A stretch of 12,154 nt of DNA. Origin: an uncultured Bacteroidales bacterium. GTDB lineage: Bacteria > Bacteroidota > Bacteroidia > Bacteroidales > Muribaculaceae. Position numbers and translations under genes: made by a program. Of this stretch, positions 1-11,982 are shown piece after piece. The notes below the pieces were generated by a model. It made no database searches. It was not told where the DNA came from and worked only from the letters and a program-made list of their open reading frames with translations. The DNA lies in contig CAMWNL010000007.1 in assembly GCA_947175585.1 (NCBI GenBank), forward strand, positions 1-12,154, in the 5' to 3' direction. The first letter of the stretch is position 1; every line of letters starts with the position of its first letter.

Positions 1-1989
1 TACCTGAACCGTGCCCGGCAGACTCCGGCTATGCTTAATATCCCGATTTCTTTCGGCAAATCAAAGTCTTCGTCTGTGCCTCAGAGTCTGATTTCTCCCC
101 TGCCGATGAACTTCGCTTTCATGGAGCTGTTCTCGCCTATTACCGCGCAGACCAAAGGCGATTTTAACAGACTGATGGTTCCCTATCGTTGTGTGGCTTC
201 CGACGTAGCCGCGCGCCATAAGATGGTTTTGTCGTCAGGCTCTATCGGCGACGCAATACGCGCGTCAATGAGCTTTCCGGCCGTATTTCAGGCTACCGAG
301 GTCAATGGCGCACTGCTCTATGACGGCGGCATCTACGACAACTTCCCCGTCGACGTAATGCGTTCGGTCTTTGCTCCGTCAATAATGATCGGTGTAGACG
401 TATCCACCGAAGAGACAGGTCCTCAGACCTCAATTCTCGACCAGCTCACCAATCTTATAGTCCAGAACAACGACTACTCTCTCCCGGCCGACGAAGGCAT
501 CAAGATAAAAATCGACCTCAACGAGTTCGGTCTCCTTGACTTCCCCAAGGCACGCCGCATCTATGCCATCGGTTACGAACACGGCATGGCGATGATTGAC
601 TCTATCAAATCCCGTATCCACACACGCACGGACTCAACGGCTCGCAACCTTCGTCGCGACGTGTTCAAATCCCGGACGCCTTACCTTCGTTTCGGCAATG
701 TTACGGTCGAGGGCGCATCACCAAGTCAAAACGAATTTATCCACCATCTCTTCCGCCGGCAATTCCACCACGACACACTGTCACTCGAAGGCGCACGCCG
801 CGCCTACTATATGGCTCTGTCGACCGACAAGCTCACCGATCTTGGCATACAGGCACTCTACAATGACACGACCGATCTTTTTGATCTAAAACTTAAAGCG
901 ACCGTCAAAAACAACTTCAAAGCCGCTTTCGGAGGTTATCTCACCTCGTCTAACAACAGCTATCTCTTCTTGTCAGCAGGCTACTCCACCCTAAGTTTCA
1001 ACTCAATTTCAGCCAACATCAACGCATGGCTCGGCCAAAGCGATATGGCCGCCATGGTCAACGGCAGCATCTATCTGCCGACTCCTATGGCTTCACGCCT
1101 CAACGTTCAGGCCGTCGTATCGCGTCGCAAGTTCTATGACGATGACTACATGTTCTATGAAACCCGTGTGCCGACCTTCATAATCGGCCATCAGTATTAT
1201 GGCCGTCTGAGTTGGTCAGTCGAAGCAGGCTATCTCGGTAAAATCGAAATAGGCGCCGGCTACGGCCATCTTCACGATTCATACTATCGCGACACCAACA
1301 GCAACAGCCGCATGTACAGTTTCGGCCGTTACCACTCATACCACAATCTCGCTCAGGCATTCGCTTCTTACCAGACCAGCACCCTCGACGACATTAACTT
1401 CCCGACCAAAGGCGACAGCTACAATGTGACCGTAATGGGCTTCACTGGTGACGCCTGGATAAAAAACTCCGACGACGAGACCCTCACCGACACAAATCCT
1501 TACTGGATACAGGCAGAAGCGCGCACACGCAATTATATTCCCATTAGTCGTCGATGGACTTTCGGCATAGAAGGTGACCTTATGCTCTCGACACGCAAAC
1601 TCCACGGCAGCTACAACTCTGCGATAATAAGCGCACCGAGCTTTGCACCGACTCCGGCGTCAAACAACACATTCAACCCCGCTTTCCGCTCCAACAGCTT
1701 CATAGCTGCCGGTGTCGTTCCAATCTACCGCTATAGTGACAATCTCTCTGCCCGTTTGCTTTGCTCCGCCTTCATGCCATTGCGAAAGATTGAGGAGCGC
1801 CCTAACGGTTCGGCATATTACGGCAAGTGGTTGTCTAAGCCGGAATTCTATGGTGAGGCCGACATCACTTACAAATTTCCCTTCGCCACCCTCGCCGCCT
1901 ATGTCAACTACTCCTCATACCCGGCCCACAACTGGAACGTCGGCCTGTCATTCGGCATCTACCTCCACGCCCCCAATTTCCTGAGATAA
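1..1989 (+). CDS. Patatin-like phospholipase fused to Omp85-type outer-membrane barrel (5' partial)
   Basis: The reading frame is open from base 1, so the N-terminus lies outside the window; the first ATG in the window (31) is an internal Met. The first part of the fragment is the C-terminal half of a patatin hydrolase domain. The segment around fragment residues 61-95 (VASDVA ... AIRASMSFPAVF) and the catalytic-Asp motif DGGIYDNFPVDV at about 108-119 are typical. The GxSxG nucleophile must lie upstream. Next comes a POTRA-like segment (about 225-290, starting near YLRFGNVTVEG), then about 370 residues of alternating aromatic/polar beta strands consistent with an Omp85/BamA-like barrel, ending in FLR. 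Patatin-barrel fusions (PlpD-like, type Vd) release or display a lipase at the outer membrane. Base composition is clearly GC-richer than the minus-strand cluster it converges on, and it looks like ordinary host chromosome. Family assignment is firm; the substrate is unknown. Confidence 0.88.
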   Translation, partial: YLNRARQTPAMLNIPISFGKSKSSSVPQSLISPLPMNFAFMELFSPITAQTKGDFNRLMVPYRCVASDVAARHKMVLSSGSIGDAIRASMSFPAVFQATEVNGALLYDGGIYDNFPVDVMRSVFAPSIMIGVDVSTEETGPQTSILDQLTNLIVQNNDYSLPADEGIKIKIDLNEFGLLDFPKARRIYAIGYEHGMAMIDSIKSRIHTRTDSTARNLRRDVFKSRTPYLRFGNVTVEGASPSQNEFIHHLFRRQFHHDTLSLEGARRAYYMALSTDKLTDLGIQALYNDTTDLFDLKLKATVKNNFKAAFGGYLTSSNNSYLFLSAGYSTLSFNSISANINAWLGQSDMAAMVNGSIYLPTPMASRLNVQAVVSRRKFYDDDYMFYETRVPTFIIGHQYYGRLSWSVEAGYLGKIEIGAGYGHLHDSYYRDTNSNSRMYSFGRYHSYHNLAQAFASYQTSTLDDINFPTKGDSYNVTVMGFTGDAWIKNSDDETLTDTNPYWIQAEARTRNYIPISRRWTFGIEGDLMLSTRKLHGSYNSAIISAPSFAPTPASNNTFNPAFRSNSFIAAGVVPIYRYSDNLSARLLCSAFMPLRKIEERPNGSAYYGKWLSKPEFYGEADITYKFPFATLAAYVNYSSYPAHNWNVGLSFGIYLHAPNFLR

Positions 1990-2055: not shown

Positions 2056-2772
2056 CTATTTAGCAACTCGATCTTTCTGATAAGCTCTAAGAATTTCAAT
2101 AGTTTCATCATCAGTTGCCGTAGCAAGCATTGCATCAAACTTCGCTCTTGCGACCGAAGAACCACGCGATAAAACCGATGCTTTTATCAATGCCAAAGTA
2201 TGACTGCTACTGCTGAATGGTATGCTTCTGCCTCCAGTTATTGCCGACAGTTCTTTCATCCATTTTTGCGGTTCAATTTCTACGGTGTCAAATCTAACCT
2301 TTTGCATAGCCGCCTTTCTTGCCTCTATCCACCAGTTAATCACGCCATCACTATGAGGCACACTATCGCCTATAAGTAAAACCGAACGTGAAGCCCCTTC
2401 GCGCCAATGCGTTTCATTAACTATTTTCCTGATGACAAGCTCATAAAATTCAGGGGCATCGCCTCCATTCGTATCTTTAGTCTGCCTAACAAATTGAATT
2501 AGTCTCCCTTTATTGGAAGATAATTTATAGCACTGATATGCGTTACCAAAATCTTCCGGACCATTCATATCACAATAATCGCCAAATGCAACTATCCCAA
2601 GCTTCAAATCCTCATTATCACGGAATAATTCCGGAATCAATGTCGCCACACCGTCTCGGACTGTTTCAATATACTCACTCATCGAGCCGGTTGTATCAAA
2701 TGCTATTATCAAATCCAGTTTCCCGAAACAGTCATTATTCTTATAATCAATTTGGGCGTCATATTTATTCAT
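2056..2772 (-). CDS. vWA-domain protein, second subtype (VwkA/hemicentin-like)
   Basis: A 238-residue protein, essentially one von Willebrand factor A domain. The metal-ion-dependent adhesion site (MIDAS) is present: DTTGSM at residues 26-31, a T/G-rich loop TNGGDAPE at 101-108, and a third Asp in LLIGDSVPH at about 132-140. The DTTGSM, VAFGDYCD (61-68) and GGDAPE signature differs from the TerY-like vWA gene three cistrons upstream in the order and resembles the vWA domains of alpha-kinase/hemicentin-type proteins. There is no signal peptide or membrane segment, so it is probably cytoplasmic. Its ATG overlaps the PP2C stop codon (ATGA, 2769-2772), so it is translationally coupled and the last gene of the operon. 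Role inferred: a metal-dependent scaffold or substrate adaptor for the kinase/phosphatase pair. The fold call is strong; the function is not known. Confidence 0.87.
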   Translation of the reverse strand: MNKYDAQIDYKNNDCFGKLDLIIAFDTTGSMSEYIETVRDGVATLIPELFRDNEDLKLGIVAFGDYCDMNGPEDFGNAYQCYKLSSNKGRLIQFVRQTKDTNGGDAPEFYELVIRKIVNETHWREGASRSVLLIGDSVPHSDGVINWWIEARKAAMQKVRFDTVEIEPQKWMKELSAITGGRSIPFSSSSHTLALIKASVLSRGSSVARAKFDAMLATATDDETIEILRAYQKDRVAK

Positions 2773-3524
2773 TTGCTTTTTCTTTTATTAAGAACCATTG
2801 CTATCGACATATCGTCCTTACTCCCGACTTCACTGAAGTGAGTCAGAGCCACCGGGAGATCTACGCATATTTTCTCACGTCCTTCTTTACAAGCCGTGTC
2901 TAGTATACATCTTAAAAAGTTATATAACAGTTCGCCATCGTCAAACGTACTGTCGATGCCATCTGAGGATAAAAATACGGCCTTGGGTTCTGTGAATCCA
3001 ATCGCGCAGCGAAATTCATCAAGTGCGCTTTCATCACACATCGAAGTCGTATAATTAAGTATACACCTGTCATCCCACGGGATAGGCTGACTCCATTGTC
3101 CGCGTCTACTCAATGTCACAAATTTACCGTCACCAATTTGTATTCCAATCCAATATTTTTTTGTCTGGAGATATGCAATCAACGTACATCCAAAAGTCTT
3201 GACAGAGTTACTTCCTCTCAAATCGTCAACCTCATCATTCCACCGGGCTATTATCGAACCACATATTGTTTTTACTATTGATTCCTCTACACCTGACTTA
3301 ATGCTACTCACAGATGCTGCAAACTCCTTTAGAGTTTCAACCGCAACTTTACATGCAATATGCGATCCAAGTGCACTGTTATAGTATGCCTCTCCTCCAT
3401 GGCCATCGCTCACGGCTGCAATTTTGATGCTGCCGGAGCGATTTTTCCATGTTATAGAGTAGTCCTGACACTCCTTCCCTATTTCTTTGTGAGAAGCCCC
3501 AATTACGGTCGAATTAAATATCAT
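2769..3524 (-). CDS. PP2C-family Ser/Thr protein phosphatase
   Basis: A 251-residue metal-dependent (PPM/PP2C) phosphatase that would remove phosphate from Ser/Thr residues, most likely those set by the neighbouring kinase. Numbered from the chosen start, it shows QDY at 20-22, the metal-binding SDGHGG at 39-44, GDG at 131-133, SSDG at 186-189 and the terminal SKDDMS at 235-240. All the Asp residues expected for the two-metal site appear present, so it should be active. A longer start at 3557 is possible but adds only a hydrophobic 11-residue lead that overlaps the upstream gene by 32 bases. I prefer the ATG at 3524, one base after the TGA of the TerY-like gene, which fits termination-reinitiation. 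No transmembrane segment is visible. The gene ends in an ATGA overlap with the next vWA gene. Confidence 0.93.
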   Translation of the reverse strand: MIFNSTVIGASHKEIGKECQDYSITWKNRSGSIKIAAVSDGHGGEAYYNSALGSHIACKVAVETLKEFAASVSSIKSGVEESIVKTICGSIIARWNDEVDDLRGSNSVKTFGCTLIAYLQTKKYWIGIQIGDGKFVTLSRRGQWSQPIPWDDRCILNYTTSMCDESALDEFRCAIGFTEPKAVFLSSDGIDSTFDDGELLYNFLRCILDTACKEGREKICVDLPVALTHFSEVGSKDDMSIAMVLNKRKSK

Positions 3525-3525
3525 A

Positions 3526-4317
3526 TCAATCAAATTCGTCAAAATCAAGAGAATCAATCAACGCTTCATCACCGACGCTCAATCCTGCGACATCATCAAG
3601 TTCTTCAGCCAACGCCGTTGCAGCCTCCTCGCTTTTTGATATCAAAGTTGCTCCTGACGCGGCCGTCCCTGTTTTGGTGCCAGACATCCCGACTGATGAA
3701 CTACGGCTTGCTACCATAGACGATGTAACAACAGTCGCTTTGATTACCGCTTTTAGTGCATCAATATTCTGAGCTCGGAAAACAAGCTCGGGGTTACCTG
3801 TAAACGTTTTCAAAACATCAATGTCCGCATCTGCCCCAATTGCAATAGCAATACGCATAGAGTGTTTAAACCAATTATTAGTCATGATCTCGCTCATCGC
3901 ACCATAAAAATCATCAGTTGGAGCGCCATCACTGAGAAGTATTATCACCGGGGCATAAGATCCGCTTGCTGATGCAAGAAATCCATGTTTATGAGACAAC
4001 TGACGGTTAAGTTCGCGAGTTGCATCACCCATGCATGTCCAGCCTTCTGCATCGAGATCTGTCCATTTGAAATCAGATGCGAGCACAGGGGTAGAATTAA
4101 TCCAATTTGCCGTACTGGCAAATGTAAGCGTTGATATTTTAATTTCCGCATCGGGATTATCATCATTGATAGTGCTGATAATCGGAATAACATTACGGAT
4201 TGCATCATTGACTGCTGCAATTTTCTCGCCAGACATACTCCCTGATGTATCCACCATCATAAAAAGGTTAAGTACACGACGCGCTGTAGGAATGAGTTCA
4301 TAATCTGTAAGTGCCAT
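3526..4317 (-). CDS. TerY-like vWA-domain protein with acidic C-terminal tail
   Basis: A 263-residue protein. Residues about 13-200 form a vWA domain with a full MIDAS: DTSGSM at 23-28, a Thr in GWTCMGDAT (92-100) and Asp130 in LLSDGAPTDD (127-136). This is the TerY type found in kinase/PP2C/vWA triads of ter-linked loci, where it is proposed to scaffold phosphosignalling; here it sits exactly between the kinase and the phosphatase. After the domain comes a Ser/Thr/Gly/Ala-rich linker (about 199-228) and an acidic tail (229-263) ending in LDFDEFD. The Ser/Thr-rich linker and acidic tail are plausible phosphorylation or docking segments (inference). There is no secretion signal. The upstream gap to the kinase is 39 bp, the largest in the cluster, and holds a tetranucleotide repeat. 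I withhold the symbol terY because no terBCDE genes are present. Confidence 0.9.
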   Translation of the reverse strand: MALTDYELIPTARRVLNLFMMVDTSGSMSGEKIAAVNDAIRNVIPIISTINDDNPDAEIKISTLTFASTANWINSTPVLASDFKWTDLDAEGWTCMGDATRELNRQLSHKHGFLASASGSYAPVIILLSDGAPTDDFYGAMSEIMTNNWFKHSMRIAIAIGADADIDVLKTFTGNPELVFRAQNIDALKAVIKATVVTSSMVASRSSSVGMSGTKTGTAASGATLISKSEEAATALAEELDDVAGLSVGDEALIDSLDFDEFD

Positions 4318-4335
4318 AATAAATTGTTTATTAAA

Positions 4336-4356
4336 TAGTTAGTTAATTAGTTAGTT
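4336..4356. repeat. Short TAGT tandem repeat between kinase and TerY-like genes
   Basis: Five TAGT-type units (the third is TAAT) run across 4336-4355, filling about half of the 39-base spacer just upstream of the TerY-like start at 4317. On the coding strand it reads as repeats of AACT. The gap lacks a TAnnTTTG box or a Shine-Dalgarno motif. It may be slippage-prone or simply AT-rich spacer. Confidence 0.55.
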
Positions 4357-5619
4357 TTATTTATTAATCTTAAATTTAAATATTGTCGAAATCACAAGAT
4401 CTTGTTTTACCGGCATGAATCCACCAGGTGCTAAGCTCAGCGACTTGCCTGACGGAGTAAGAACTGTCCATGCCTTCTCAGTCAGATTTTTTATTAGAAG
4501 CAATCCTGAAGCATCATTTTTATCTATGACTACTCCAGAGGGAACACCCGTACGCTCGAAGCGAATGATATTTCCCTTTATTAATGGTATAGACCGGCCG
4601 GCTCCTTCCATTACATATGTCACTTGGATGGGTTTTCGGCATCGTGGATTCAGACATGGCTGATTGCCATAGACAAACGTCTCATCTCCGCAATGAGGAC
4701 ATTTCATAAGATGGTCTCTTAGCGAGATAAAAACATCAACCCACTGCATCTCAGTCATTCGTTCCTGAGGAGAGTTTATAATACGGTCACTAAACTGCTC
4801 TTTAAATTTACCTCGTAATTCCTCGGGAAGCAACGGCCACATTGTCAGAGCATTGCGATGAACGCCTCTTACTGGACGATTAATATCCTTTTCATCATTA
4901 AATATGAAACAGATATCCTTACCAAATAAACGCTGCTCAAATGCTTCAGTAAGACATGGATGCTTTATCACATTAAAACCTTCAAAGGGATGGTCGACAC
5001 AAAACAGCATGAACAAAATAACTGTAAGACTGAAGCGGTCTGTGTAGCTATTAGGAAGAGTCTTACCCATGACTACTTCGGGTGCCATATATCGTGCCTT
5101 ACCCAAAATTCCAGAATTTTCACCGTGAGGATAGACGTTATCACAGTCACATATCCGCACATCTCCTGTATTAGGATTGATAAAAAAACCACCGTCATTA
5201 AGGTCTTGATAAGAAAGTCCATTAGCATGAAGAAGCCTGAACGCATCACACAAATTCATAGCGGCCTCAATAATTGCCCTGAAAGATGAAAAACGGACTT
5301 TTGCCATACGGAACTTTGTAAATTCATAGCAGCCGTCAGGTTTAAGAGGCATTAAATAACCTATCCCTCCTGTACGAACTTTTGCAAGAGCCTCAGGCCA
5401 AAGAAACGTTGGCGAAGGTGAGCCGTCCTTAATATTTTTTCTGATGTTTTTAAGGAATCTTTCAGATGGCTGTTTTCTAAACCATTTAAGAGCTTTTCGC
5501 TGGCCATCAACACTTACCGCATAAACTGCGCCTTGAGCACCCTCTCCAAGAAAGCTATCGACGATTGCACTACGGCCGTCTTCCAATCTAATTGTCTCTC
5601 CTTTTTCGAATTGTTGCAT
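4357..5619 (-). CDS. Ser/Thr protein kinase with C-terminal zinc ribbon (TerY-P-type)
   Basis: A 420-residue soluble kinase. The N-lobe has the glycine loop GEGAQG (25-30) and the ATP-anchoring Lys45 in ALKW. The catalytic loop reads YQDLNDGGFF (137-146) in place of HRDxKxxN, keeping Asp139 but with Gly144 where Asn is expected. The Mg-binding DFG equivalent is DCDN at 158-161, and MAPE (178-181) is the APE motif. After the kinase domain comes a zinc ribbon with Cys307, Cys310, Cys322 and Cys327, then a beta-rich tail (about 340-420) with NLTEKAW and LAPGG elements that could be an FHA-like or related sandwich fold (tentative). The zinc-ribbon kinase next to vWA and PP2C genes is the hallmark of TerY-P triads. 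It starts nine bases after the helicase stop. It presumably phosphorylates cluster proteins; activity is probable but not certain given the altered loop. Confidence 0.9.
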   Translation of the reverse strand: MQQFEKGETIRLEDGRSAIVDSFLGEGAQGAVYAVSVDGQRKALKWFRKQPSERFLKNIRKNIKDGSPSPTFLWPEALAKVRTGGIGYLMPLKPDGCYEFTKFRMAKVRFSSFRAIIEAAMNLCDAFRLLHANGLSYQDLNDGGFFINPNTGDVRICDCDNVYPHGENSGILGKARYMAPEVVMGKTLPNSYTDRFSLTVILFMLFCVDHPFEGFNVIKHPCLTEAFEQRLFGKDICFIFNDEKDINRPVRGVHRNALTMWPLLPEELRGKFKEQFSDRIINSPQERMTEMQWVDVFISLRDHLMKCPHCGDETFVYGNQPCLNPRCRKPIQVTYVMEGAGRSIPLIKGNIIRFERTGVPSGVVIDKNDASGLLLIKNLTEKAWTVLTPSGKSLSLAPGGFMPVKQDLVISTIFKFKINK

Positions 5620-5628
5620 AATAGTATA

Positions 5629-8600
5629 TTAGACTGTTATATTATCAAAAAATGTTTTGGGGTGAAACGAACGCGGCAACATATAACCGGTACACATATT
5701 ACCATGAATGTCTGTATATTTTACCATATGTCCGAATGTCATCGCCATAACGATTCGCGACAACCTACCAGTCTTTATATGCTTAGCACATTGTTTACAT
5801 TTGGCAATACCGGCAAGAACATTCCCTGTAATGATGTAAGCAGATTCGCGGTTCTTTTTAGCTAATATCGCATCCCAGTTACTTAAATTAATTGATGAAT
5901 TGCGTGTAAGGCAAATACCAAAATATGATTGATGGATAATCGTCTGCAGACTCCCAGTGTCTGACATCGGAATTTTGACTACACTCCGGCTATCATTTAC
6001 TGCGAATATGGCATAAATTCGTGATTTAGTGTATTTATCTCCCATTACACTGAATCCCATGAAGATACCAACAGGAATATTAGCTACGTAACTGGGATCA
6101 TCTATTTGTCCATCTGGAATTATTGTCGACGGGATAGAGTACGTACATCCGACATGAAAACTCTCCATCGAATCCTTCAAGCCACTATAATTTAACTCCA
6201 CCTCTTGTATCTCTTTATTCATCCTTTCATGATTGTCTGCCCTTTCGCTTATAGCCTTGATTCGGGATGGTGTATATGAGGTTGACGTTTTCAAAAGCGC
6301 AAGTTGCCGCAGTGCTATTGCCCTCAATTCCGCATAATAATCGGTGACTGCCTGTATTTTCCTATCCTTGGCTTCCATAATTTTGGGAATTAGGTCTGCT
6401 GCGCTATTGAGGGTTGACATTCGCTCTTTTATTTCTGACGCATTCAATGGTTTACGCAATACGTTTACCTCATACTTATCCAAATATGCATCACTTGCAA
6501 AAGGAGAATCTGCATCTTTCTTGCCTGGTACAAACACTTGCCGCTTGATTAATTCTGCCTGTAGAGGCAGAATATTCACAGTTAAATCATTCTCATTATT
6601 TTCATCAAGAGAAGCAATTAATTGATTATAACGCTCCATCACCTCTGTCAAAATTTTTTCTTGCTCAGCACATGATAGCAGACCGAGGTCTCGCATAAAA
6701 TATGACACGAACTCTGCATTCTTACCTTTAATCACACCATTCTTCTTCCTAAAGCTATTTGCCCCCTGACTGATTTGTGCGCCTGATATAGTCTCAGCAT
6801 ATTCTGGATTCTCATAACTGAATTCTTCAATTACTTTTGCACCATACTTGTTAAATATATCGACACATATGGTATCTCGACCCTGATTAGCCTCTACATT
6901 TGCATTGAGTGAACGCTGTTTCCGTCTGTTTAACATCAGATATCTCTGTTCTACTGGTATAGGCGACGCGAGAACAATGTACTTGCAGTGATTTAATTGA
7001 CCGGTACGGTCTGCTCGACCATCAAACTGAGTTTGCACATCTGCGCTATCTTGTTGCTCCCAAGTTATCATTGTGCGCGAACGTGTGTCTGCAAATCCTT
7101 CTGAATTATGCAGTGAAATACCTGAAGCCATAACTCGATTACCTATTAATACATCAATCTTGCCGTTATTAAAGTCTGACGCCAATTGTTTTTTATCTGA
7201 TTTTTTTCGAGCTTGGCAAACTACACTGCTGTTAGGACCATTTGCCACATCATCATATACAAGCATCGCCTTACGCTCAGTCAGCTCGCCTACTTTTAGA
7301 CCTTCTTCTGTCAGACGTTGAACGAAATAGTCAATCGGACTAAGTGGCAATCCGGTCAATACAGAGGATATGTCATAAAGCAACTGGTCGTAACAATTCT
7401 GCACATCCTCACCTTTTATACCTGTTAGTAAAAACCCACTTTTCATCCACAGTGGACTATTATAATAGTCAATTACATCTGACAATTGATATTTACACTT
7501 TGTAGAATATGATGTCTCTACATATTTCTTTCCTACTTTCTTTGAAGTCTTACCAAACACTTCATATTCAAAGACATTTGTAACACTATCTTTTAAAACC
7601 TGAGCAAAATCAGGATTGTCACAACTATCGCCAATATTCATCAATTTGGCGATATTGCTCTCCATCGTTCGCGATATCTGCACAATCGGTTTACGCCCTG
7701 ATTTTACCTCTTCAAGCGTCTTATCAATAGCTAATTCGGTTTTTAATGCAAAAAGAAGCTGACGGATAGTCGGAGATAACCTCTGCTGTGGACTCCATGG
7801 TTTTATTTTACAATCGTCCGTTAACCAGTTTTCGCCTGCACTTGTTTTATGAGTCGTCGAAAGTATCCCTACCGGATCTATCGAATTAATATACACTGAA
7901 ATATAATCTTTATAAAATGATCGGATATCATCAATCAAGGCAATAATCTTATCATAACTTACACGAAGCGATTGTATAGCGGATTCATCTTTAGTAGTCT
8001 CCAATACTCTCTCCACCTCACTCATATCGCGCTGTCTACGAATCATAGAACCTGACTCAACAAGACCTTGGGCCATCACTTCCTGCAGGATAGTGCCGCC
8101 TTGTGAAACTATGTCTAATAGGTCCTCCGATGATATTTTAGCAGACCCCATTGCAGTCTTAAAAGCATAAATCGGCATGCTGGATGCATATTTGGCATAG
8201 GTAGCCGACGCAAAGCACACACCTGCAGCCTCTTGAACAGCCTGTTGAAAAAACAGGCCTACATTGCTGGTTATGCCGCTTGCATTATGACTTTCGTCCA
8301 TAATTAGGTAGTTTCCTTTGATTGCAGATAGCACGGCTCGGGGTTTCCAACTTTTACGGGAGTCTTTTTTAAGCTGAGAGTAGGTTAGCAATAAATAGTC
8401 ATAACCGAGAGGAATTTCTCCTGTGTTTCTAAATTCTTCTATTTCGTATGATGATGGAAGATTATAGATAATGTGACCGACGGCGTCTGTTATACGTGCT
8501 GTCGAGTCACTATTTAATATAAATGGACGCATATCTCCGTAACCGATGTCTTTGAGATCACGATACAAGTCATTAAATAGTATTGATTTCTCAGTTACAA

Positions 8601-9288
8601 ACACTGGTTTTTTACCTTGACGCTGAGCCCATTTTAAGAGCATAGCCAACTGGCGCCCCTTGCCGATGCCGGTCATATCACCAAGTATAAACGCCCGGCC
8701 ATCAATCATCTGTCTCATCGCTAATGCAACACCATCAATTTGCTCTCCGCTGATTTTCTTCCTTATCTCTTCAGCGTTTGGCTCGCCCATCTCGCTCCTT
8801 ACAAACTCTATAACGCTTCCTTCTTCGTTTGCAATGGCATTTAAATGGCGGTGAACGGACTGTGCCATGACGGCAGGAATCAGTGTCCCAATGTTATCTG
8901 AAGACCCATGGGAGATATACTCAACAGTATCATCCTCAAGATTAACAGCTTGAGTAATCTCCTTACCTTTTATCGAGCCAAATGACACCTCGTCGATTGC
9001 ACCAAGAGCAAAACCTAAACAGTCGATAGAGTAACGGAGATTATCAACTTCTACACCAGGATATGACGCCATATAAGTGGCAGCTGATGGCTTGCCAGTC
9101 TTCCATAATCTGATAATTTGCTTTAGATGGCCATACACAACCATCTTAGCGAATATTGGTTTTAAAGGTCTGTTATCCGGATCTGAGAACATTTTTTCAT
9201 CAGCCATTATTCCCGTCAAATAAGGCGAATCGAGAATGCCAATACCATAAGTGTCTACAAAACTTTTGAGCTGTGTATGAAGTGTCAT
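5629..9288 (-). CDS. Strawberry-notch-type SF2 helicase/ATPase (large DNA-processing protein)
   Basis: A 1219-residue protein. The first helicase core has a Walker A GDMTGIGKGRQ at 203-213 (the GxGKGR form typical of strawberry-notch/SNO ATPases), the Walker B box MDESHNASG at 330-338 and motif III FASATY at 359-364. The second core has motif V IGNRVMASGISLH at 715-727 and the arginine-finger motif QFDGRADRTGQ at 754-764. The tail has YIITGN at about 1151-1156 followed by YTDIHGN and GYMLP near 1191-1205, a pattern I associate with the C-terminus of SNO-like proteins in phages and plasmids. No methyltransferase or nuclease motif is seen in the remaining sequence. An upstream ATG at 9303 exists, but the ATG at 9288 is preferred: it has a clear GGAGGA six bases upstream and makes an ATGA overlap with the ligase stop. 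Expected to translocate on or remodel duplex DNA using ATP. Confidence 0.9.
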   Translation of the reverse strand: MTLHTQLKSFVDTYGIGILDSPYLTGIMADEKMFSDPDNRPLKPIFAKMVVYGHLKQIIRLWKTGKPSAATYMASYPGVEVDNLRYSIDCLGFALGAIDEVSFGSIKGKEITQAVNLEDDTVEYISHGSSDNIGTLIPAVMAQSVHRHLNAIANEEGSVIEFVRSEMGEPNAEEIRKKISGEQIDGVALAMRQMIDGRAFILGDMTGIGKGRQLAMLLKWAQRQGKKPVFVTEKSILFNDLYRDLKDIGYGDMRPFILNSDSTARITDAVGHIIYNLPSSYEIEEFRNTGEIPLGYDYLLLTYSQLKKDSRKSWKPRAVLSAIKGNYLIMDESHNASGITSNVGLFFQQAVQEAAGVCFASATYAKYASSMPIYAFKTAMGSAKISSEDLLDIVSQGGTILQEVMAQGLVESGSMIRRQRDMSEVERVLETTKDESAIQSLRVSYDKIIALIDDIRSFYKDYISVYINSIDPVGILSTTHKTSAGENWLTDDCKIKPWSPQQRLSPTIRQLLFALKTELAIDKTLEEVKSGRKPIVQISRTMESNIAKLMNIGDSCDNPDFAQVLKDSVTNVFEYEVFGKTSKKVGKKYVETSYSTKCKYQLSDVIDYYNSPLWMKSGFLLTGIKGEDVQNCYDQLLYDISSVLTGLPLSPIDYFVQRLTEEGLKVGELTERKAMLVYDDVANGPNSSVVCQARKKSDKKQLASDFNNGKIDVLIGNRVMASGISLHNSEGFADTRSRTMITWEQQDSADVQTQFDGRADRTGQLNHCKYIVLASPIPVEQRYLMLNRRKQRSLNANVEANQGRDTICVDIFNKYGAKVIEEFSYENPEYAETISGAQISQGANSFRKKNGVIKGKNAEFVSYFMRDLGLLSCAEQEKILTEVMERYNQLIASLDENNENDLTVNILPLQAELIKRQVFVPGKKDADSPFASDAYLDKYEVNVLRKPLNASEIKERMSTLNSAADLIPKIMEAKDRKIQAVTDYYAELRAIALRQLALLKTSTSYTPSRIKAISERADNHERMNKEIQEVELNYSGLKDSMESFHVGCTYSIPSTIIPDGQIDDPSYVANIPVGIFMGFSVMGDKYTKSRIYAIFAVNDSRSVVKIPMSDTGSLQTIIHQSYFGICLTRNSSINLSNWDAILAKKNRESAYIITGNVLAGIAKCKQCAKHIKTGRLSRIVMAMTFGHMVKYTDIHGNMCTGYMLPRSFHPKTFFDNITV

Positions 9289-9300
9289 ACAATTTCCTCC
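9285..9300 (-). promoter_or_regulatory. Shine-Dalgarno and ATGA coupling site of the helicase gene
   Basis: On the minus strand GGAGGA (9300-9295) lies six bases before ATG at 9288, and that ATG overlaps the ligase TGA at 9287-9285. This decides the helicase start. It is the only strong Shine-Dalgarno sequence in the cluster; the other genes have A-rich, weak or no such motif. Confidence 0.75.
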
Positions 9301-10670
9301 CATCCTTTTTTTATATTTAACAAAATCATTTCATCAAGAAGCTCCATTATTTGGCTACGACTGCTTGACACCCTCAAATCACGTTTTAGTTGTTCGTTTC
9401 GAGAATAGTTATAGTCAATGTGGCAAAGGACATAAGCCGGAAATGCACCTGATTGCTCTTTATTTGTCTGCCATACCAAAAATTTTTGTACTGCAGTTTT
9501 AAGACCTGTTTTTTTTACAAATACACGTCGGGACAGAATGGTACTCAACGGCATATGACCATAATCGATAGCCCTGCCTTTTGAAAACTCGCATAAGTCA
9601 GTGATTTGGGTCACCCTGACATCTTCAGAGCATACTTTTTTGTCCGTGCGCTCCCTTACAAAGGTCGCGCTATGAAGAGCCACTCCCGGCGTCTTACCCA
9701 CTGCCTTATAACCGTCATTGCAATCAAGCTCTATCAGCATGTTCTGTTTAGGCTCGCCCATCGAATTTTCAGTCACGAAATCCACTGATGAAATTTCTAT
9801 TACAATTTCGGGTTTGACCATCTGGAATGCAACGCCTCGTGAATCTGTTTCAAAATATTCTGACTCTACAGTTTTATCTCTTAGTCTATTGAAAAATTCA
9901 CTTCTTTGTTGTTCAGTAAGGCCGCCACCTACAGCGACAATCTGTCTGAACGTACCATCTTGCTCCATAACGGCAGTCAATAGGTCGCGAACCATATCTC
10001 TATGATCACCCTCACCTTCCGTGAAGCCAATCACAGCAACATCTATCGTATGCCGGGGTTTGATTTTATATACAAATCCATTTGAACTATGAACGACCAG
10101 ACCTTCGCATCCACGTTCGACTACTAACGAATTATAAATTTGTCGGACTTCTGCAACTGAAGTGCATTGACGTCCTTTAACCGGACTAACTAAACCACAT
10201 TGAGCAAAAAGCATCTTTAGCTTATGCATTTTTTCTATTATTGGCAGGTGACTCAAATCTTTACCATCTACTTCCAATAAATCAAAGGGTGCGAGTCGCA
10301 GTTTGTCAAAGAATTTCACGTCAGCCATAGCTATGGCAACATCACACACTCGTTCTCGTCCTGTATCGCTTAAGCTAACATACAATTCGGCTGCAAAAAG
10401 GGCGCTTGTAACACCTATTGACCGTAATTTATTAGCGACTTCTTTAAGACACGGTAAATCACTGGGCGTTTTGTTTCCGCCCGTTCCGAAAGCCGTTGCC
10501 ACTCCATCAGCATAATATACTAATTGCATCACACCGTCAAGTTTTTGGGTTACTAAAAATTCTTGACCTCCAACCTTTTCTTCAAGTTTACTTCCGTCGA
10601 CAAGCATAAATTTTCCAGGGACACGGCGTTTATAGTCCTGCGCAAGAGACGATATATCTTTTAAATTCAT
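9285..10670 (-). CDS. ATP-dependent DNA ligase with C-terminal extension
   Basis: A 461-residue nucleotidyltransferase that should seal nicks through a lysyl-AMP intermediate. Motif I is KLDG with the adenylated Lys at 43. A candidate motif III lies at AAELYV (93-98), with IIIa at FDLLEVDG (129-136). Motif IV is EGLVVHSS (189-196), and motif V is YKIKPRHTIDVAVIGF (201-216). The OB-fold domain includes PEIVIEISSVDF (287-298) and motif VI FVRERTDKK (337-345). Residues about 365-461 form an extra C-terminal segment that I do not recognise. Motif VI and the OB domain favour a DNA ligase over a capping enzyme, though an RNA-joining role cannot be excluded. NAD-dependent LigA is the usual replicative ligase in bacteria, so this one is accessory. 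Its ATG overlaps the stop of the upstream unknown gene (ATGA, 10667-10670), and it is coupled in the same way to the helicase downstream. Confidence 0.88.
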   Translation of the reverse strand: MNLKDISSLAQDYKRRVPGKFMLVDGSKLEEKVGGQEFLVTQKLDGVMQLVYYADGVATAFGTGGNKTPSDLPCLKEVANKLRSIGVTSALFAAELYVSLSDTGRERVCDVAIAMADVKFFDKLRLAPFDLLEVDGKDLSHLPIIEKMHKLKMLFAQCGLVSPVKGRQCTSVAEVRQIYNSLVVERGCEGLVVHSSNGFVYKIKPRHTIDVAVIGFTEGEGDHRDMVRDLLTAVMEQDGTFRQIVAVGGGLTEQQRSEFFNRLRDKTVESEYFETDSRGVAFQMVKPEIVIEISSVDFVTENSMGEPKQNMLIELDCNDGYKAVGKTPGVALHSATFVRERTDKKVCSEDVRVTQITDLCEFSKGRAIDYGHMPLSTILSRRVFVKKTGLKTAVQKFLVWQTNKEQSGAFPAYVLCHIDYNYSRNEQLKRDLRVSSSRSQIMELLDEMILLNIKKGWEEIV

Positions 10671-11362
10671 AATGAGATGTTTTTAAGTTCAAGATTGGTC
10701 ATATGTAGAATCAGACAATACTTATCTCCGTCAACACGTCCCTCAAGAAATGCTCTGTAAGGCGTGCCACCTGTTGACATAACCAATGGGCCTATACCTT
10801 TTAATCCGGCACCAATAAGCATCATCGAGTTGCTGTCATGCAACTGCTGGGCAATGCTATAGAGAAAATCAAATGTAAGTCCGTTAATATGTTTTATCTG
10901 ATATTTTCTCGTAAAGGCAAACATTCTGATTGCCTTGAATTTCGGAATCATCTTGCCTGTCCAACGCAATGGTATCTCTCTATTGATGTTTGACTCTGTT
11001 GTCTTATATGGACGTGAATCTTTTTCTTCACCTTCCGGTGTATAAAACACATGCTGTCTCGAAACTCTATGCGCAACTTTCAATGATGAATCAAGAAATA
11101 CTTTCTTGGTCGAATTAAGATATAAACCAACCTTCTCGATGTCAGTTTCGACATCACAATTGATTATCTGATCAGTCAAGTCCTCACCATATTGACTTAT
11201 CAGCATTTCAATCGCTGTATGAGGCGTAAATTTTAGCATTCTTATATTTCTGACATCCTGTCCATCGGGTCCGCACATTTTAATATTACTCTTTACAGCT
11301 CTGATATCCAATCCGACCTGTGCGTTTCGGCTCTTTGCATTTGATAAGTTTATAGCTCTCAT
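10667..11362 (-). CDS. Conserved-looking protein of unknown function, ligase-linked
   Basis: A 231-residue protein that I cannot assign to a named family. It has no signal peptide, no membrane helix and no nucleotide-binding motif. The N-terminal half is mixed, with a possible helix HTAIEMLISQYGEDLTDQII at about 48-67. The middle is basic (RKYQIKHINGLTFDF, about 152-166). The C-terminal part has glycine-rich turns (LIGAGLKGIGPLV, 182-194) and ends in beta-like strands near YCLILHMTNLELK (about 215-227). It starts 14 bases after the previous stop, with an AGGAAAG motif about six bases before the ATG acting as a modest ribosome site. Its stop overlaps the ligase start (ATGA). That tight coupling to the ligase suggests a partner of the ligase/helicase, for example a DNA-binding or adaptor subunit, but this is context only. 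Confidence 0.8.
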   Translation of the reverse strand: MRAINLSNAKSRNAQVGLDIRAVKSNIKMCGPDGQDVRNIRMLKFTPHTAIEMLISQYGEDLTDQIINCDVETDIEKVGLYLNSTKKVFLDSSLKVAHRVSRQHVFYTPEGEEKDSRPYKTTESNINREIPLRWTGKMIPKFKAIRMFAFTRKYQIKHINGLTFDFLYSIAQQLHDSNSMMLIGAGLKGIGPLVMSTGGTPYRAFLEGRVDGDKYCLILHMTNLELKNISL

Positions 11363-11376
11363 ATAATCTTTCCTAC

Positions 11377-11982
11377 TTACATCATTGAAAAATCGAGTTC
11401 TCCATCTTCTATATTTATATCCTCGTCACTAGTATCTAACTCTGCAAATTCATCAAGACCGACAAATTCGTAAGTGGTCAAAGTCCCTGTGAGCATAAAT
11501 ACACCATTTTCATTTGCCAAAACAAATGCAGTGTTACATTCATAGCCTCCTCTATAGCTAAAAGGGAAAGTATATATACGGCTATCAATTCCTGCTGCAA
11601 GCTTTATTGCATCAATGCCTGTTAGCTGGTATACAGACTGAATACTCAAATCAAGCAATTCTTCAATACTTGCTTCGCGAGCCAAAGATATTTCATTGTC
11701 AAACGATGAAGGAATTTTTACTGGAGTTGAGCCATCTTCAGCCTTAGGGATGAGAGCTTGCTTATCAACCCAGTTTCCACTATTATCAATTATTCCGATT
11801 TTAGTAGCTCCAGGACAAATAATATTTATTCCATCGCCATTTATTGCCGCTTGGCTACAACACGTACCGTCAGCATTAAGGACTCGTAGTTCGGTGTGTC
11901 CATAAAGTTTGTCCCGGTCTACCTTTTGGGGGATGAGTTCAAATGAAGAACCTCTAAGTGAGATTGCTATTGTTTTTGCCAT
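11377..11982 (-). CDS. Protein of unknown function with KLYG motif and acidic tail; first gene of operon
   Basis: A 201-residue protein, first in the cluster. I do not recognise the family with confidence. Residues 1-90 look beta-rich and carry a KVDRDKLYG motif (20-28) followed by LNADGTCC (35-42). A helical segment follows (about 99-130), then YTFPFSYRGGYECNTAFVLA (137-156) and GVFMLTG (160-166), which look like a second beta unit. The last 25 residues (177-201) are strongly acidic with an embedded Thr-Ser pair and end in GELDFSMM, echoing the acidic LDF-containing tail of the TerY-like protein. There is no secretion signal. The leader before the ATG at 11982 is A-rich without a Shine-Dalgarno sequence, usual for Bacteroidota. 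I compared it with TerD-type domains and did not see their calcium-binding Asp motifs. Its placement suggests a sensor or a substrate of the kinase, which is inference. Confidence 0.8.
   Translation of the reverse strand: MAKTIAISLRGSSFELIPQKVDRDKLYGHTELRVLNADGTCCSQAAINGDGINIICPGATKIGIIDNSGNWVDKQALIPKAEDGSTPVKIPSSFDNEISLAREASIEELLDLSIQSVYQLTGIDAIKLAAGIDSRIYTFPFSYRGGYECNTAFVLANENGVFMLTGTLTTYEFVGLDEFAELDTSDEDINIEDGELDFSMM

What the first reader, a model, noticed from the sequence alone, without database searches (positions are those of the whole stretch)
2056..11982. Eight-gene operon joining a TerY-P-type phospho-switch to a helicase/ligase DNA-processing module
Seen: kinase with zinc ribbon, TerY-like vWA, PP2C, a second vWA, a strawberry-notch-type helicase, an ATP-dependent DNA ligase and two unknown proteins, all on one strand with short gaps or overlaps. 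Known: kinase/vWA/PP2C triads (TerY-P) are linked to ter stress and anti-phage loci. Inference: reversible phosphorylation gates a DNA remodelling and sealing machine. With no nuclease, methyltransferase or Ter core genes visible, this differs from restriction and from classical ter clusters and may be an undescribed or under-described defence or DNA-damage system.
Basis: partly seen in the sequence, partly recalled or inferred. Interest (0 to 1): 0.85.

Follow-up and report, generated by a model that had tools for sequence, protein, structure and literature searches.

The report
Hidden two-Ku DNA end-joining operon
A bacterial gene cluster that looked like a phosphorylation-controlled helicase/ligase unit contains, at its core, two unlabelled proteins predicted to share the fold of Ku (the ring that grips broken DNA ends) next to a DNA ligase, which suggests an overlooked way for bacteria to rejoin broken chromosomes.

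Summary
All eight genes are present on one strand, as described, but the cluster is composite. Its conserved core is the first three genes: the two 'unknown' proteins (A, B) and the ligase, contiguous as A-B-ligase in 58 of 80 related loci from many bacterial phyla. A and B match no family in Pfam, NCBIfam, PADLOC or PHROGs, yet their AlphaFold models match Ku: the 50 listed Foldseek PDB rows of each are Ku or Ku complexes, and B's two best viral-library rows are phage Ku proteins. Profile comparison finds no sequence signal, so the link is fold-only. I read A-B-Lig as a cryptic, probably heterodimeric-Ku end-joining operon. The TerY-P triad is an exchangeable regulator: found whole or in part in 4 of 80 loci, while 7 carry a MoxR/midasin-type ATPase plus vWA protein; two Treponema loci fuse a vWA to the ligase. 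The helicase accompanies the core in 2 of 80 plus the window. Tail counts are lower bounds (contig ends). End joining is inferred, not shown; evidence for anti-phage defence is weak.

The parts
11377..11982 (-). Protein A (here 'KuA-like'): 201 aa, Ku-core fold predicted, acidic, C-terminal tail ...ELDFSMM
10667..11362 (-). Protein B (here 'KuB-like'): 231 aa, Ku-core fold predicted, basic, most conserved of the three
9285..10670 (-). ATP-dependent DNA ligase (adenylation + OB domains) with a conserved, unassigned C-terminal domain of about 115 aa
   Evidence: PF01068, PF04679; best NCBIfam TIGR02779 NHEJ ligase 5.4e-20, below its curated cut-off; best PDB rows of the family profile are other DNA ligases, 3rr5 6.4e-20; invariant K43, D45, G46, E95, E189, K202, K204 in 29 rows; C-terminal domain without a clear family match
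5629..9303 (-). Strawberry-notch-type SF2 helicase, accessory
   Evidence: PF13872, PF13871; orthologues next to A-B(-Lig) in L008 and L009 (2 of 80 loci)
4357..5619 (-). Ser/Thr kinase with C-terminal zinc ribbon (TerY-P kinase)
   Evidence: PF00069; alignment with L008, L009, L077
3526..4317 (-). TerY-type vWA protein with DTSGSM MIDAS sequence
   Evidence: PF00092; alignment
2769..3557 (-). PP2C phosphatase
   Evidence: PF13672 4.7e-33; aspartates conserved
2056..2772 (-). Second vWA protein, no relative among the loci scanned
   Evidence: PF00092 1.8e-7; 0 phmmer hits

Best explanation
The core A-B-ligase operon is a bacterial end-joining (NHEJ-like) module in which two adjacent, diverged Ku-core proteins form a (probably heterodimeric) ring on broken DNA ends and bring the dedicated ATP-dependent ligase to seal them. 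A carries an acidic tail ending in a conserved DFSM-type peptide, likely a docking site for the ligase's own conserved C-terminal domain or for a regulator. In this window the core has acquired a TerY-P phospho-switch (kinase, PP2C, vWA) that sets assembly or release of the complex, and a strawberry-notch helicase that remodels or clears the ends. Shown: gene content, cross-phylum operon, co-divergence, intact motifs, vWA-ligase fusion. Predicted: Ku fold of A and B. Inferred: heterodimer, end binding, joining, phospho-control, tail docking.
For: A and B models, built from separate alignments, each retrieve Ku first; the viral library returns two phage Ku proteins at probability 1.00 and every other listed row at <=0.23 (none reaches E 0.001). 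Contiguous A-B-Lig in 58 of 80 loci, 50 of 62 with room on both sides; A-B gap mostly near 12 nt, and 41 of 68 B-Lig pairs overlap by listed start codons. Pairwise distances of A, B, Lig correlate at 0.93 in 53 loci, none of 1000 shuffles reached this (shared host ancestry alone also raises it). Best NCBIfam model of the ligase is the NHEJ ligase, and 4 of its 5 plasmid-collection matches are annotated LigD. Two Treponema loci fuse a TerY-like vWA to the ligase, and one (L077) has kinase-vWA-PP2C directly downstream. Ku + ligase operons were the original hint at bacterial NHEJ (PMC1378119 passages). Canonical Ku was found in 2 of 78 host genomes and not in the own, 77%-complete assembly.
Confidence: 0.65

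Rival explanations
1. A and B are Ku/SPOC-like protein-interaction scaffolds (as in Integrator INTS13-INTS14) that hold the ligase, without threading onto DNA ends; the ligase seals nicks in another pathway.
For: SPOC and INTS13/14 rank close behind Ku; insertion region low-confidence; A strongly acidic; ligase profile closest in the PDB to non-NHEJ ligases.
Against: The listed Foldseek rows are Ku in the PDB and the two best are phage Ku in BFVD; B's alignment to M. tuberculosis Ku spans residues 1-231 on 4-177, 140 aligned.
Confidence: 0.17
2. Anti-phage defence system: Ku-like A/B recognise linear phage DNA ends, and the TerY-P switch plus helicase turn this into protection or growth arrest.
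For: Patchy, rare distribution (B in 1 of 395 of the phylum sample; 3 of 295 of the order sample; own genome included); TerY-P is found with restriction systems (PMC11090510 passages); a few defence-model matches near some loci, e.g. a type II restriction enzyme near L041.
Against: No triad part or helicase seen at 76 of 80 loci (many contigs end early); B not found in phages, plasmids or viral contigs, A not in plasmids; PADLOC matches scattered and without a control set; no nuclease in the window.
Confidence: 0.1
3. Two unrelated modules (A-B-Lig and TerY-P + helicase) happen to be neighbours in this lineage, with no functional coupling.
For: Each occurs without the other.
Against: Same juxtaposition in L008 and L009 and, in another phylum, in Treponema (L077, L073), where a vWA is fused to the ligase; tight spacing and a 19-nt ligase-helicase overlap.
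Confidence: 0.12
4. A is not a ring partner but an acidic Ku-fold decoy (DNA mimic) that holds B, or the ligase, off until the switch releases it; B alone is the end-binding homodimer.
For: Net charge A -22.7, B +4.2 on average over 53 loci; same operon and co-divergence.
Against: Same fold side by side is equally the expectation for a heterodimer; no direct test made.
Confidence: 0.15

Closest known systems
Bacterial NHEJ (Ku homodimer + LigD)
   Same: Ku-fold protein encoded next to an ATP-dependent ligase; best NCBIfam model of the ligase is the NHEJ ligase.
   Different: Two distinct Ku-fold proteins with no detectable sequence similarity to PF02735; ligase without LigD polymerase or phosphoesterase domains, with its own C-terminal domain, and not closest to LigD in the PDB. 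Canonical system: PMC12784961 and PMC1378119 passages.
Two-Ku operons and multi-Ku bacteria within canonical Ku
   Same: Two Ku genes side by side, heterodimers proposed (PMC1378119 passage; Streptomyces, PMC5124664 passage).
   Different: Those are recognisable Ku homologues; A and B are not seen by the Pfam Ku model.
Eukaryotic Ku70/80 with DNA-PK
   Same: Two Ku-core subunits, vWA domains, a kinase and a ligase in one pathway.
   Different: vWA in trans or fused to the ligase, unrelated kinase type; a resemblance of organisation only. vWA-core architecture of Ku70/80: PMC11936186 passage.
TerY-P triad (ter clusters, CoCoNuTs, stand-alone)
   Same: TerY vWA, PP2C, kinase with C-terminal zinc ribbon (PMC11090510 passages).
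   Different: Here attached to a Ku-like/ligase core and a strawberry-notch helicase; no Ter or McrBC genes among the ORFs of the window.
MoxR/midasin-type ATPase + vWA pairs (incl. SWIM/DUF5682 clusters)
   Same: Lie downstream of A-B(-Lig) in other loci: 7 of 80 with a midasin-like AAA+ ATPase and a DUF2201 vWA protein, one with SWIM-HEAT-MoxR-DUF5682-CoxE.
   Different: Not in the window, where the TerY-P triad lies downstream instead.

Membership tests
Bacterial NHEJ / Ku (PF02735) | Sequence match to the Ku family model | tested here: not met
   No PF02735 among 62 B and 61 A members at E<=10; hhalign no better than controls
Bacterial NHEJ / Ku (PF02735) | Ku-core fold | tested here: met
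   On predicted models of moderate confidence only:
Bacterial NHEJ / Ku (PF02735) | DNA-encircling bridge / ring dimer | tested here: inconclusive
   Insertion of suitable length but low pLDDT; no complex predicted
Bacterial NHEJ / Ku (PF02735) | Co-encoded ATP-dependent ligase with intact active site | tested here: met
Bacterial NHEJ / Ku (PF02735) | Ligase of the NHEJ (LigD/LigC-like) type | tested here: inconclusive
   Best NCBIfam row is TIGR02779, but under its cut-off; PDB profile closest to other DNA ligases
Bacterial NHEJ / Ku (PF02735) | LigD-type polymerase or phosphoesterase domain | tested here: not met
   Only PF01068 and PF04679 above cut-off
Bacterial NHEJ / Ku (PF02735) | End binding and end joining | not testable with these tools
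   Needs bench work
TerY-P triad | Kinase + zinc ribbon, TerY vWA, PP2C adjacent | tested here: met
   definition from PMC11090510
TerY-P triad | Match to a defence-system model in PADLOC-DB | tested here: not met
   No hit for vWA and PP2C; kinase only matches models of other kinase systems. I did not check whether the library holds a TerY-P model
Anti-phage defence system | Enrichment in defence islands | tested here: inconclusive
   127 of 460 eligible neighbours scanned, scattered hits, no control set
Strawberry-notch helicase | AAA_34 + Helicase_C_4 domains with SF2 motifs | tested here: met

The most novel reading that the evidence does not exclude
A-B-Lig is an ancient, separate branch of end joining with an obligate two-subunit Ku, found across many bacterial phyla and missed by the sequence models tested, whose recurrent partners (vWA proteins, a kinase-phosphatase switch, MoxR/midasin-type remodelers, vWA fused to the ligase) mirror the make-up of eukaryotic Ku70/80-kinase-ligase NHEJ: a bacterial DNA-PK-like arrangement and a possible clue to how vWA domains came to be joined to Ku.
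Probability: 0.35. Interest if true: 0.95.

Novelty: new variant of a known kind. Interest (0 to 1): 0.85.

Why it matters
If right, bacteria from many phyla have a second, unrecognised end-joining pathway with a two-subunit Ku; canonical Ku was found in only 2 of the 78 host genomes searched. That would change estimates of which bacteria can join ends without a template (relevant to genome editing in gut bacteria and to mutation), and gives a small, testable system for the evolution of Ku heterodimers and of kinase control over end joining. It also gives TerY-P and MoxR-vWA-type regulators a concrete, biochemically testable client.

Tried and rejected
Sequence proof of Ku homology: profile-profile comparison, deeper alignments with reversed and unrelated profiles as controls (B against reversed Ku even scored higher than against true Ku), Pfam at E 10, PDB sequence profiles: nothing.

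Ligase C-terminal domain as WGR-like: suspected by eye; Pfam and PDB profile searches do not support it (only PDB row spore coat protein H, E 0.025). Dropped.

Mutual exclusion with canonical Ku: 2 of 78 hosts against 19 of 148 in a phylum sample; the samples are not matched by lineage, so not claimed.

Mobile-element origin: no match to B in phages, plasmids, viral contigs nor to A in plasmids (A was not searched in phages); ligase matches there are distant: 2 records of one phage, 5 plasmid-collection records, 4 of them LigD. The helicase alone has relatives on 307 plasmid records and 3 phage records, but the three neighbourhoods looked at (L002-L004) are different; a viral-contig scan with the helicase found none.

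The four large upstream genes scanned (L017, L054, L066, L078) are LptF/G-like, NACHT/TPR-type, CarboxypepD_reg-type and a DEAD-box helicase: no common partner. Calling the AAA+ genes of the seven loci MoxR at first rested on my own HMM, which included L014's; BLASTP between L012 and L014 copies is not significant, and the nearest PDB chain is midasin (1.5e-12); hence 'MoxR/midasin-type'. Structures of helicase or ligase were not predicted: both jobs went to A and B.

Literature: ten searches in the held open-access library showed no description of this triad in their listings. Anantharaman et al. 2012 (the ter / DNA-processing paper) is not held; I know it by recall and through PMC11090510 only, so it may already mention parts of this context. 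Papers: PMC11090510, PMC12784961, PMC11936186, PMC13201618, PMC5124664, PMC1378119, PMC10910872 seen as passages; PMC10853773, PMC12839542, PMC7159879 searched for terms without a hit; others as search listings.

Full report
Observation. The eight ORFs are real and lie as stated. Families: ATP-dependent DNA ligase, strawberry-notch helicase, protein kinase, two vWA proteins, PP2C; the first two genes (A, B) match nothing at E<=0.1 in Pfam, PADLOC, NCBIfam or PHROGs. The window is contig C7 of a 2.17-Mb, 77%-complete assembly in 409 contigs. The named relatives of B and ligase at about 70% identity are from a Muribaculaceae MAG (P0004, P0127), so I take the host for a gut Bacteroidales.

The conserved unit is not the eight genes. 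B has 1219 and the ligase 521 database relatives at E<=1e-3, A 1952 with an alignment query (searches scored only the candidates sharing most words); none of the 120 listed A or B relatives carries a Pfam domain. A pattern scan with a B alignment over one genome per species (84,980 species) found 329 encoding stretches; the best 80 were kept (L008-L087). Their record titles (MAG titles may mislabel) name Bacteroidota, Bacillota, Actinomycetota, Chloroflexota, Desulfobacterota, Spirochaetota, Planctomycetota, Verrucomicrobiota, Lentisphaerota, Myxococcota, Proteobacteria and Neomarinimicrobiota (phylum names partly my reading of the titles). By my ORF calls A was found in 73, B in 78 and the ligase in 72 of the 80; A-B-Lig directly in a row in 58 of 80, and in 50 of the 62 loci with room on both sides. 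These are lower bounds: overlapping ORFs hid, for example, B in L032 and L063 and A in L015, which one search lists. A-B gaps centre on 12 nt; 41 of 68 B-Lig pairs overlap by listed start codons. Distances among A, B and ligase correlate at 0.93 over the 53 loci with full-length copies; host phylogeny contributes to this. In 23 of 80 loci the co-directional run holds A-B-Lig alone, 13 of these with 1 kb or more on both sides.

Details of the core. A is acidic (mean pI 4.2), B basic (mean pI 8.5). A's last 12 residues hold DF in 53 of 53, DFSM in 44 and end exactly in [IL]DFSM[FM] in 38. Such a fixed C-terminus suggests a docking peptide (inference). The ligase has the nucleotidyltransferase residues invariant in 29 rows, plus a conserved C-terminal domain of about 115 aa for which I found no clear relative. 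Its type is not settled: best NCBIfam row is the NHEJ ligase model (5.4e-20, but 71.8 bits against a cut-off of 227.75), 4 of 5 plasmid-collection matches are LigD, yet the family profile scores best in the PDB with other DNA ligases (3rr5, 6.4e-20; DNA ligase 1 about 1e-15; ligase 4 2.6e-11; the M. tuberculosis Rv0938 ligase domain 6.9e-6).

Accessory modules. Of 80 loci, four carry TerY-P parts: L008 (ligase, helicase, kinase, TerY, PP2C as in the window), L009 (same, but no ligase found and a shorter helicase ORF, 913 aa), L077 (Treponema: A, B, vWA-ligase, kinase, TerY, PP2C) and L073 (Treponema, contig edge: PP2C, A, B, vWA-ligase). The Treponema ligases begin with a TerY-like vWA (BLASTP 4e-34 and 6e-35 to L077's TerY; L077's fused copy 8e-32 to the window's TerY; single comparisons); Pfam does not report a VWA there, and in L077 the MIDAS sequence of the fused copy looks degenerate. 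Seven others carry an AAA+ ATPase plus a DUF2201-type vWA protein downstream on the same strand (L010, L012, L016, L020, L027, L041, L044); the ATPase of L012 is nearest to midasin in the PDB (1.5e-12). L014 has a SWIM / HEAT / MoxR / DUF5682 / CoxE-vWA cluster; L071 and L070 show a SWIM gene and a MoxR-type gene at contig ends. The common factor is a vWA protein with an energy- or phosphate-driven switch. Only 52 of 80 loci have 3 kb or more behind the core, so these counts are lower bounds. Eukaryotic Ku70/80 carry a vWA fused to the Ku core (PMC11936186, passage); here it comes in trans or fused to the ligase. TerY-P also occurs without the core: 6 of 393 Bacteroidales genomes have the kinase at E<=1e-30 (own included), and in the other five stretches, all with kinase, TerY and PP2C, no A, B or ligase was seen (L119 is only 3.7 kb). 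So TerY-P is a plug-in regulator, as already described for other systems (PMC11090510, passages), and this window shows it plugged into a Ku-like/ligase core.

Distribution and role. The core is rare: B in 1 of 395 (phylum sample) and 3 of 295 (order sample), ligase in 3 of 297 (family sample), own genome included each time. Some of these hits are probably loci already held (equal contig lengths: L007/L126 and L039, L123 and L053, L124 and L056). Canonical Ku is in 2 of 78 host genomes of the loci, not in the own assembly, and in 19 of 148 of a phylum sample. The window's ligase is the only PF01068 match in its assembly. No matches to B in phage, plasmid or viral collections and none to A in plasmids. 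A PADLOC scan of 127 neighbours gave scattered matches at E<=1e-15 (three MzaA, two DpdF, two BrxH, single others) without a control set: inconclusive.

Mechanism proposed. Ku-like A/B load on double-strand ends; the ligase is recruited and seals; the kinase/PP2C pair, read by the vWA protein, switches assembly or release; the helicase clears or remodels ends. The Ku fold is predicted, the rest inferred. Alternatives (scaffold, defence, decoy A, chance neighbours) are listed with tests.

Novelty. Ku-ligase operons and even two-Ku operons are known for recognisable Ku proteins (PMC1378119 passages). What appears new is a cross-phylum pair of Ku-fold families outside the libraries tested here, with its own ligase type and exchangeable vWA-based regulators. 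Ten searches of the held open library listed no description; the 2012 ter paper could not be read.

Noticed in passing
L014:12176-19913: SWIM zinc finger, HEAT-repeat, MoxR, DUF5682 and CoxE-type vWA genes follow A-B-Lig in Pseudobacteroides cellulosolvens; the term DUF5682 was in no held paper.
   Followed up: partly
L077:2809-4959 and L073:2096-3709: DNA ligases with a TerY-like vWA region fused at the N-terminus; in L077 the MIDAS sequence looks degenerate.
   Followed up: yes
window 5629-9303; L002:1511-17686: The closest phage relative of the helicase (30.5% over 90%) lies inside a 16-kb single gene of Bacteroides phage BS-TP4; PHROG 14770, a 3427-position family of unknown function, also matches.
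   Followed up: no
window 4357-5619: Kinase catalytic loop has Gly (YQDLNDGGFF) where the Treponema relative has Asn; the same Gly is in L008 and L009. Activity may be altered (significance recalled from kinase biology).
   Followed up: no
L009:6744-10350: In Prevotella pectinovora no ligase was found and the helicase ORF is only 913 aa, shortly after B: partial loss of the cluster or an assembly effect.
   Followed up: no
L016, L031, L036, L041, L042, L125: BspA-type leucine-rich-repeat genes sit inside or close behind the A-B-Lig operon in several Bacteroidales, even between A and B (L125) or between B and ligase (L036, L042).
   Followed up: no
L126:1862-2233 (same place as L007:365-736): A 23S rRNA intervening-sequence-type protein gene between A and B.
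   Followed up: no
window 1-1989: Patatin-like phospholipase ORF, convergent with the operon, open at the contig's 5' end.
   Followed up: no
L010:5304-6635, L012:12092-13389: Two further proteins (about 200 and 232 aa) between A-B-Lig and the ATPase-vWA pair in a Tidjanibacter and an Alistipes MAG; the two L010 copies have no Pfam hit.
   Followed up: no
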